This document shows positions 34,073-35,902 of a DNA stretch of 64,000 bases, piece by piece. The stretch spans positions 620,001 through 684,000 of the forward strand of contig NZ_ML214297.1 of NCBI RefSeq assembly GCF_004698125.1, read 5' to 3'. The number at the start of each line of letters is the position of its first letter. The first letter of the stretch is position 1. This DNA is from Halosimplex halophilum (lineage in GTDB: Archaea; Halobacteriota; Halobacteria; Halobacteriales; Haloarculaceae). The notes beneath the pieces are model-generated. The model worked only from the letters and a program-made list of their open reading frames with translations, was not told the origin of the DNA and did no database searches. Made by a program: the position numbers and the translations under genes.

Positions 34073-34504
34073 ATGAGGCCCGAACCGGTCGAGGCGAGCG
34101 ACGGCGGGGCTGACGGGGCGACCGACGCGTTCGACCCGTGGCTCGCGCTCCAGCGGGTCACCGACGAGACGCGGGCGAACATCGTCGCGGACGTGGTCGG
34201 CCACCCGAAGGGCGCGCCCAGCGTCGACGAGCTCGACTACACCAACCCCAGCCTGGAGGCCGACACCATCCGCAACCACCTGAAGACCCTCGCGGAGGCG
34301 GGCGTCGTCGAGGAGCTGACGGTCCCCGCCGGCCAGCGGACCCGGGGCTACCCCTACAAGTTCTACCGGGTGACGGAGGCGGCCCGGGAACTGTTCGACC
34401 GCAACGGCCTGTTCCCCGCGGAGGCGTGGCGACGCCAGTACGAGCGCGTCGAGAAGACCCCCGAGATCCGTGAGCTCGAAGCGATGCCCCGCCCGGATGA
34501 GTAG
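34073..34504 (+). CDS. Winged-helix transcriptional regulator
   Basis: The predicted protein has 143 residues. The helix-turn-helix lies at about 22-75 with LALQRVTDETRANIVADVVGHPKGAPSVDEL, the recognition helix SLEADTIRNHLKTLAEAGVV and a wing with YPYKFYRVTEAAREL. The pattern resembles ArsR/PadR-like haloarchaeal regulators. It has no visible sensor domain. It is divergent from the unknown gene at 33.3-33.9 kb, with a 136-bp shared promoter, and may regulate it. Confidence 0.85.
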   Translation: MRPEPVEASDGGADGATDAFDPWLALQRVTDETRANIVADVVGHPKGAPSVDELDYTNPSLEADTIRNHLKTLAEAGVVEELTVPAGQRTRGYPYKFYRVTEAARELFDRNGLFPAEAWRRQYERVEKTPEIRELEAMPRPDE

Positions 34505-34562
34505 ACGGAGTCTGTGACTGGGGCCGATCGCTCGCGATCGACTCGTTTTGGCTCGGCGGCAA

Positions 34563-34645
34563 GCGGTGAAAGCCTTCGACGCGCTCGCTAGCAGTCGTCT
34601 CGACCGTACTCGACAGCAGGCGGTGAAAGCCCTCGCCGCGCTCGC
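34563..34645. repeat. Pair of 26-bp direct repeats
   Basis: Copies at 34563-34588 and 34620-34645, 57 bp apart, begin GCGGTGAAAGCC and end CGCGCTCGC. They differ at two positions only. They may be remnants of a dispersed haloarchaeal repeat. Confidence 0.8.
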
Positions 34646-34809
34646 GGTCGCTGAGGCGGGATATCCGCGCTCTCCGCACCGCCCGCGCGGATAGTGCCCG
34701 CTCAGGCGACTAAACTGCACGCGAGCGCGCCTCGCCCGTTCAGTCCGCCAGGCGCCGCAACCGCACGGCACCGCAACCGCACCGCAGGGGGCCACGAGCC
34801 TCCCCAGCC

Positions 34810-34874
34810 GATTCGCGACACACGAGTCGCGAATCCCTCGCGCGGTGCTGTCGCGACACGAGAGTCGCGACAGC
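34810..34874. repeat. Two adjacent perfect hairpins with TCGCGAC stems
   Basis: Hairpin 1, 34810-34835: stem GATTCGCGAC with its complement (10 bp), 6-nt loop ACACGA. Hairpin 2, 34847-34874: stem GCTGTCGCGAC with its complement (11 bp), 6-nt loop ACGAGA. The shared TCGCGAC stem and similar loops show that the two are related. They could be transcription terminators, part of a small RNA, or protein-binding sites. Confidence 0.75.
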
Positions 34875-35002
34875 GCGCGCCGACCGCACCGTAACCGTCC
34901 GTCACGGGCACCGAGAGCCCCACAGTTGGTCGTTCGTGCCATCCCCAGATCCGATAACGGGGGACGAACCTATACAATCCCCCACCCGCAAGGGTCGGTC
35001 GA

Positions 35003-35902
35003 ATGATCACGGCCCGCGACCTGCGCAAGGAGTACGGCGGCTTCGTCGCGGTTGAGGGGAGCACGTTCACGGTCGAGGAGGGCGAGGTCTTCGGCATCAT
35101 CGGCCCGAACGGGGCCGGCAAGACGACGACGCTGAAGATGCTGGCGGGCCTCGTCGAACCGACCGACGGCGAGGTCTCCGTCGCTGGCTACGACGCTGGC
35201 GAGACGGAGATGCGCCAGCGGCTGGGCTTTCTCCCCGAGGAGTCGCCGCTGTACGAGGAGATGACGCCGGTCTCGTACCTGCACTTCTTCGCGGATCTGT
35301 ACGACGTGCCGGAGGGCGTCGCGGACCGGCGCATCCACGACACGCTCGAACGGCTGGAGCTCGACCACCGCGACCGCCCGCTGGGGGACATGTCCAAGGG
35401 GATGAAGCGGAAGGTCGCCATCGCGCGGTCGCTCATCAACGACCCCGACGTGCTGATCTACGACGAACCCGGCAGCGGCCTCGACCCGCTGACGACCAAC
35501 TACATCATCGACTTCACGCGCGAGCTGGGCGAGCAGGGCAAGACCATCGTCTTCAGCGCGCACAATCTCTACCACGTCGAGAGCATCTGCGATCGCGTCG
35601 CCATCATGAACGAGGGTCGCATCGTCGCCAAGGGCGACCTGGACGAACTCCAGGCGGAGTACGGCCGGACCGAGTACCACGTCTACACGACCGTCGAAGT
35701 GCCGGATAGCGCCCGCGAGAACGGCCACTACCGGCGCGTCGTCGAGAGCATGGACGCGGTCGACGAGACCCGGGAGGCGGCCCAGGCCGCGGGCGGCGAG
35801 GTCGTCGACATCCGGACCGAGGAGTCCAGTCTCGAAGAGGTGTTCCTCAACGTCGCCGAGTCCGACCCCGAGGCCGAGCGGACCTCGGGGCCGCGGCCGT
35901 GA
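35003..35902 (+). CDS. ABC-2 exporter ATP-binding protein
   Basis: The predicted protein has 299 residues. The Walker A motif GPNGAGKTTTLKML is at about residues 34-47. The signature loop is MSKGMKRKVAIARSL, a variant of LSGGQ seen in NatA-type exporters, followed by Walker B DVLIYDEPGSGLDP and the switch His in IVFSAHNLYHVESI. The C-terminal 80 residues form the extra domain seen in Nat/Nod/Yha ATPases. It energises the two permeases encoded downstream, which overlap it (GTGA at 35899-35902). Substrate unknown. Confidence 0.93.
   Translation: MITARDLRKEYGGFVAVEGSTFTVEEGEVFGIIGPNGAGKTTTLKMLAGLVEPTDGEVSVAGYDAGETEMRQRLGFLPEESPLYEEMTPVSYLHFFADLYDVPEGVADRRIHDTLERLELDHRDRPLGDMSKGMKRKVAIARSLINDPDVLIYDEPGSGLDPLTTNYIIDFTRELGEQGKTIVFSAHNLYHVESICDRVAIMNEGRIVAKGDLDELQAEYGRTEYHVYTTVEVPDSARENGHYRRVVESMDAVDETREAAQAAGGEVVDIRTEESSLEEVFLNVAESDPEAERTSGPRP

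What the first reader, a model, noticed from the sequence alone, without database searches (positions are those of the whole stretch)
34505..35002. Structured 498-bp non-coding region before the ABC-PrsW operon
It holds two related perfect hairpins (10- and 11-bp stems sharing TCGCGAC, each with a 6-nt loop) and two 26-bp direct repeats with GGTGAAAGCC. Its short frames do not look coding. This could be a small RNA, a paired terminator, or a relic of a dispersed repeat.
Basis: partly seen in the sequence, partly recalled or inferred. Interest (0 to 1): 0.55.

Follow-up and report, generated by a model that had tools for sequence, protein, structure and literature searches.

The report
Haloarchaeal dispersed hairpin DNA element
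The gap between two genes is filled by one of many scattered copies of an unannotated hairpin-forming DNA element of salt-loving archaea, whose two ends hardly change while its middle changes freely but stays self-complementary.

Summary
The hairpins and direct repeats are real, but they are the edges of something larger. Window 34552-34885 is one copy of a dispersed intergenic element of the haloarchaeal genus Halosimplex. Rfam has no match. In 120 of 120 copies the core avoids predicted genes, in every orientation, which speaks against a terminator or leader. The core is a hairpin of mostly 105-135 nt with near-invariant ends (GAAAGCCC...GCCCTTTCAGTCCRCCAGG) and a variable middle that stays paired (28 of 35 pairs with changes on both sides; covariation 0.405 against 0.03-0.06 for slid controls). 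Copies at shared sites are seldom each other's closest relatives; some sites are swapped or empty between species. Best reading: a REP/MITE-like, protein-less mobile DNA hairpin, homogenised by recombination, enzyme unknown; Y1 transposases do not track it. A multi-copy RNA is not excluded.

The parts
34552..34885 (+). the whole element copy (left edge approximate, right edge taken at the CAGCGCGCGCC end)
   Evidence: extent of matches to other copies in the genome; no precise empty site was found to fix the ends
34525..34638 (+). two 57-nt units; each holds a left end of the hairpin (GCGGTGAAAGCC...GCGCTCGC), the second being the core's own left end
   Evidence: 65 of 120 copies have at least one left-end motif besides the core's own
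34624..34752 (+). core hairpin with near-invariant ends TGAAAGCCCTCG and GCCCGTTCAGTCCGCCAGG (T for G at one place in most copies)
   Evidence: alignments A1 and A2, covariation; model R1
34753..34795 (+). ACCGCA-rich linker of variable length
   Evidence: alignment of 40 copies; 15-nt direct repeat 34752-34782
34796..34835 (+). CCTCCCCAGCC motif and hairpin 1 (34810-34835)
34836..34885 (+). ATCCCTCGCGCGG motif, hairpin 2 (34847-34874) and right end CAGCGCGCGCC
34073..34504 (+). HTH gene left of the element (context)
   Evidence: Pfam HTH_20, E 9.2e-07
35003..35902 (+). ABC ATPase gene right of the element (context)
   Evidence: Pfam ABC_tran, E 6e-31

Best explanation
It is one copy of a non-autonomous, hairpin-forming dispersed DNA element of haloarchaea that behaves like bacterial REP and MITE elements. 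SHOWN: many copies per genome; the copies checked lie between genes; near-invariant asymmetric ends; a middle that varies widely but stays paired; sites shared, empty or swapped between species; copies at shared sites mostly not each other's closest relatives; extra left ends in tandem. INFERRED: an enzyme acting in trans recognises the invariant ends on a single-stranded or extruded hairpin and copies or inserts the element; insertions into genes are lost by selection; later recombination between copies (gene conversion, now and then crossover) homogenises the family and rearranges the chromosome. I infer no role in controlling the ABC operon: the element merely sits in that gap.
For: 85 and 97 model matches in two species (floors, 150 candidates scored in each); 61 of 194 class genomes; core outside predicted genes in 120 of 120 copies and the longer BLAST extent outside genes in 40 of 40 G000 copies (my own gene caller); invariant ends and covarying arms; no recurrent neighbouring gene among 150 loci; the G004 site of L035 is empty, the G005 site of L037 holds other sequence while G004 has the element; 11 G000 sites conserved, 2 swapped, 12 with one flank only among 40; orthologous copies rank first in 0 of 10 (core) or 1 of 10 (longer stretch); extra left ends upstream in 15 of 94 hairpins, 0 of 84 in the downstream control.
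Against: No mobilising enzyme found; Y1 transposases show no association (37 of 61 element-bearing genomes against 96 of 133 others, p=0.13). No target duplication or exact insertion boundary was obtained. The HTH-ABC site is occupied in 7 of 8 Halosimplex genomes, so movement is slow at least here. The minus strand folds to lower energy in most copies (33 of 35, 82 of 83, 60 of 64, 62 of 64) and wobble counts lean to that strand, which an RNA gene would also show. The core is very conserved, so the ranks are noisy.
Confidence: 0.6

Rival explanations
1. A multi-copy family of structured RNA genes, most likely read from the minus strand, with the hairpin kept by selection on the RNA.
For: Strong covariation. 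Strand-neutral wobble counts, GT to AC on the plus strand: 4:9, 4:15 and 15:24 in MAFFT alignments of the element, against 37:16 for haloarchaeal SRP RNA on its own strand, so the element leans to the minus strand. Minus-strand energies are lower in nearly all copies. With wobble allowed in the fold, the minus strand gave 32:8 and 46:18, though that choice of structure favours the folded strand.
Against: In A2 the count is 31:28, no lean. This copy folds into the covarying hairpin on the plus strand and not on the minus strand, and neither core strand folds significantly better than shuffles (z -1.41 and -0.77). No promoter-like AT peak outside either end. About a hundred copies of one RNA gene would be unusual.
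Confidence: 0.2
2. A host-maintained chromosomal site, for example a binding or recombination site of a nucleoid or DNA-repair protein, kept by selection at many places.
For: Near-invariant ends across genera; same gap occupied in 7 of 8 Halosimplex genomes; all orientations used.
Against: Sites differ between species; 133 of 194 class genomes had no match under the strict filters, so no general haloarchaeal need; extra left ends and nested insertions look like mobile DNA.
Confidence: 0.12
3. A transcription terminator pair or regulatory leader of the flanking genes.
For: Position between two co-directional genes; the stretch 34552-34885 folds as single-stranded DNA better than 100 of 100 shuffles (z -4.33).
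Against: No orientation bias; 32 of 118 copies with both neighbours known lie between divergent genes. The one terminator-like site in the stretch, 34525-34540, is not beyond chance (1 found, mean 0.5). G004 lacks the element in this gap while the stretch just upstream of the ABC gene is still alike.
Confidence: 0.03

Closest known systems
Bacterial REP/REPIN elements (GTAG and CGTC super-families)
   Same: High copy number, extragenic, imperfect palindrome with an unpaired conserved tag at one end; CGTC REPs are also said to lack a dedicated transposase (passages of PMC3733652; PMC3116915).
   Different: REPs are 20-40 bp and this core is mostly 105-135 nt; the unpaired tag here is AGTCCRCCAGG, not GTAG or CGTC; Y1 transposases do not track it.
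Prokaryotic MITEs
   Same: Short, non-coding, multi-copy, non-autonomous; known in Halobacterium and Haloquadratum (passage of PMC10969869).
   Different: No parent insertion sequence, terminal inverted repeat of a transposon or target duplication was found; only the ends are conserved and the middle is rewritten.
Integron attC sites (recalled, not searched)
   Same: Conserved ends around a hairpin whose sequence is free while its fold is kept.
   Different: The ends differ from the attC core boxes as I recall them, and the copies are scattered, not in cassette arrays.
CRISPR repeats
   Same: Tandem units with a conserved and a less conserved part.
   Different: Adjacent 57-nt units are alike over their whole length (72%), so there are no unique spacers; copies are dispersed.

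Membership tests
REP/REPIN | many extragenic copies per genome | tested here: met
REP/REPIN | imperfect palindrome with a conserved unpaired tag at one end | tested here: met
   hairpin plus AGTCCRCCAGG tail
REP/REPIN | GTAG or CGTC tag, 20-40 bp length (passages of PMC3733652) | tested here: not met
   different tag and mostly 105-135 nt
REP/REPIN | association with a Y1 (RAYT-type) transposase | tested here: not met
   PF01797 in 37 of 61 element-bearing and 96 of 133 other genomes, p=0.13; absent from G185, G172 and G188, each with 17 of 17 scored candidates matching
MITE | short non-coding multi-copy element | tested here: met
MITE | terminal inverted repeats shared with an autonomous transposon | tested here: inconclusive
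   ends pair with each other, but no parent element was seen; neighbours of 150 loci show no recurrent transposase
MITE | target-site duplication | tested here: inconclusive
   the empty site found is too diverged to place the ends
Structured RNA family | covarying base pairs | tested here: met
Structured RNA family | excess of GU over AC on the transcribed strand | tested here: inconclusive
   weak minus-strand lean in three alignments, none in A2
Structured RNA family | a transcript | not testable with these tools
   no RNA data
Rfam families | match to any of 4227 models | tested here: not met
   no match at E<=1 in 34450-35050
Intrinsic terminator | fixed orientation downstream of genes | tested here: not met
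Integron attC site | attC core boxes and an integron integrase | not tested
   considered from memory only

The most novel reading that the evidence does not exclude
A class of protein-less hairpin DNA elements confined to haloarchaea, spread by an enzyme that is not of the IS200/REP (Y1) kind, recognised through short invariant ends while the interior is rewritten in paired fashion, and driving gene conversion and rearrangement among up to about a hundred sites per genome.
Probability: 0.35. Interest if true: 0.72.

Novelty: new variant of a known kind. Interest (0 to 1): 0.57.

Why it matters
A family of this size, matched in 61 of 194 sampled haloarchaeal genomes and absent from Rfam, would give archaea their own counterpart of bacterial REPs, with an open question about its enzyme. 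The invariant ends are a ready bait for finding that enzyme, and the copies are markers for gene conversion and rearrangement in archaeal chromosomes.

Tried and rejected
Rfam at gathering score over the window and at E<=1 over 34450-35050: nothing for this stretch. Phages: no match in 50,697 records. Viral contigs: 0 exact matches to the right-end pattern. Plasmids: partial matches on 6 records (Halorussus, Halovenus, Haloarcula, Natrinema), with no annotated feature under the best place in the 5 annotated records; three regions read; the right part alone also matches a Halobaculum plasmid. A dedicated partner gene: none recurrent; the largest cluster, 18 proteins in 16 of 150 loci, looks like ABC ATPases to my eye. 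Y1 transposase as mobiliser: no association (both searches look at a limited number of candidates, and one search used strict filters, so absences are soft). Coding sequence: core lengths vary in steps that are not multiples of three, 116 to 130 in 35 copies. Terminator or leader: rejected on orientation. Strand of a putative RNA: left open.

Rows dropped before counts: 5 of 40 G000 copies not in A1 because the motif search missed them; 2 of 40 G000 copies and with them 1 of 11 shared sites (L055); 8 of 120 copies; 7 of 120 copies had no right end; 80 of 97 G003 matches were fetched. A2 came from 63 chosen sources of those held. Genome match counts are floors: 150 of 12,047 and 150 of 12,332 candidates were scored, and 17 per genome. 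Paper searches (listings seen) showed no description of this element; one search looked for six short strings, five from the ends and one mistyped, and found four unrelated papers. Passages, not whole texts, were seen of PMC3404096, PMC3733652, PMC10969869 and PMC3116915. The library is open-access only.

Full report
Observation. The 498-bp gap 34505-35002 is non-coding, lies between an HTH gene (34073-34504) and an ABC ATPase gene (35003-35902), and holds the two perfect hairpins and the direct repeats as described. Both motifs are beyond chance in the window.

What it belongs to. A DNA search of the window's own genome (G000, 4.47 Mb, 7 contigs) returned 58 matching pieces from 40 scored candidates of 269, mostly within window 34552-34897. 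Each of the 7 other genomes of the genus gave 21 to 27 pieces. The genus is Halosimplex: G003 and G005 have contigs exactly as long as H. pelagicum R2 (5,199,031) and H. aquaticum XZYJT29 (4,824,346) (inferred from lengths). A model built from 35 cores (window 34624-34752) matches 85 places in G000 at E<=0.01, 64 of them at E<1e-15, and 97 in G003. In 194 class genomes 61 have a match at E<=0.001, from 31 of 65 genera. Rfam has nothing at E<=1.

Anatomy. From left to right: 57-nt units that repeat the left end of the hairpin (here one besides the core's own; 65 of 120 copies have at least one extra, up to five); the core hairpin; an ACCGCA-rich linker; CCTCCCCAGCC with hairpin 1; hairpin 2 and the right end. 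Some copies are shorter (L058 loses similarity after the core, L035 after the linker) or carry nested hairpins. Extra left ends recur outside Halosimplex with other spacings: 54-nt units in L078, 60-63 nt in a Halobacteriales MAG. In named and class loci, 15 of 94 hairpins have an extra left end within 420 nt upstream and 0 of 84 in a downstream control stretch; 9 of the 15 are Halosimplex.

Structure. In 64 class-wide sequences the ends GAAAGCCC and GCCCTTTCAGTCCRCCAGG barely change, while the arms between them differ widely yet pair: 92.8% of cells paired, 28 of 35 pairs with changes on both sides, 325 such cells against 81 in shuffles, covariation 0.405 against 0.03-0.06 when partners are slid. 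A2 was aligned to the model and leans towards the structure. Most matches are 105-135 nt, one 179 nt. At the window's own site the arms are GCGGG/CCCGC here, GCGAC/GTCGC with a second paired change in G003, and GCGAG/CTCGC in G001; G002, G006 and G007 each have a mismatch in these arms, and G005 lacks the inner hairpin. A subset of sequences (for example L112, L119, L123, L155) keeps the ends and basal stem but has a different inner part.

RNA or DNA. A strand-neutral count of wobble (GT) against its mirror (AC) gave 37:16 for 30 haloarchaeal SRP RNAs on their own strand. For the element on the plus strand it gave 4:9 (A1), 4:15 (A3), 15:24 (A4) and 31:28 (A2): a weak minus-strand lean, or none. 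Energies are lower on the minus strand in nearly all copies. Yet this copy folds into the covarying hairpin on the plus strand and not on the minus strand, and neither folds significantly better than shuffles; the longer stretch folded as DNA does (z -4.33). No promoter-like AT peak lies outside either end. I regard this as undecided.

Placement and evolution. In 120 of 120 copies (40 in G000, 80 in G003) the core avoids genes predicted by my own caller, with all four gene contexts represented. At the HTH-ABC gap the element is detected in 7 of 8 genomes, partly in some, and not in G004. Of 40 G000 sites, 11 have both flanks at one G003 element, 2 have flanks at two different G003 elements, 12 keep one flank and 15 none (80 of 97 G003 matches examined). 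One G003 element (L229) joins flanks that in G000 lie beside two different elements, L039 and L042. A 20-kb stretch around the window site is collinear between the two genomes, so breaks are not frequent everywhere, but this is a single control. At 10 comparable shared sites the orthologue was the closest G003 copy in 0 (core) or 1 (longer stretch), although the flanks are 84-97% identical; nested insertions and few free positions make these ranks noisy. Of three further sites looked at in the genus, the L035 site is empty in G004, and the L037 site holds other sequence in G005 but an element in G004.

Mechanism. The best fit is a protein-less mobile hairpin recognised in trans at its ends, with later homogenisation by recombination. 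The enzyme is unknown. Y1 transposases, which are thought to move bacterial REPs, show no association (37 of 61 against 96 of 133, p=0.13), and no neighbouring gene recurs among 150 loci.

Known or new. It works like REPs and MITEs but fails the REP size, tag and enzyme tests, and MITE membership could not be settled. My open-access literature searches showed no description.

Noticed in passing
L108, L112, L119, L120, L121, L123, L155, L174, L181: A sister type with the same ends and basal stem but a different inner domain, often with GTGCTTGC; it suggests that the ends are the unit of recognition.
   Followed up: no
L025, L031, L043, L053, L056 and 20 of 80 G003 loci (for example L224, L233, L240): A T-rich module TTTTTCACCCATGTTTTT near the right side of some copies: 5 of 40 G000 loci and 20 of 80 G003 loci. 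Its nature is unknown.
   Followed up: partly
L047, L052, L053; also left of the match in L093: A small hairpin CGAAAATC-N3/4-GATTTTCG lies in or near some copies: 3 of 40 G000 loci, 0 of 80 G003 loci, and a copy is visible in another genus beside the L093 match. It may be a second tiny mobile hairpin.
   Followed up: partly
window 34945-34985: The stretch before the ABC gene (CCCAGATCCGATAACGGGGGACGAACCTATACAATCCCCC) is kept in closely similar form in the other Halosimplex genomes, including G004 which lacks the element; probably the operon's promoter.
   Followed up: partly
L085 and L087: Two genomes of another genus carry the element beside what look like the same flanking genes, with different but still paired arms.
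   Followed up: no
   Followed up: no
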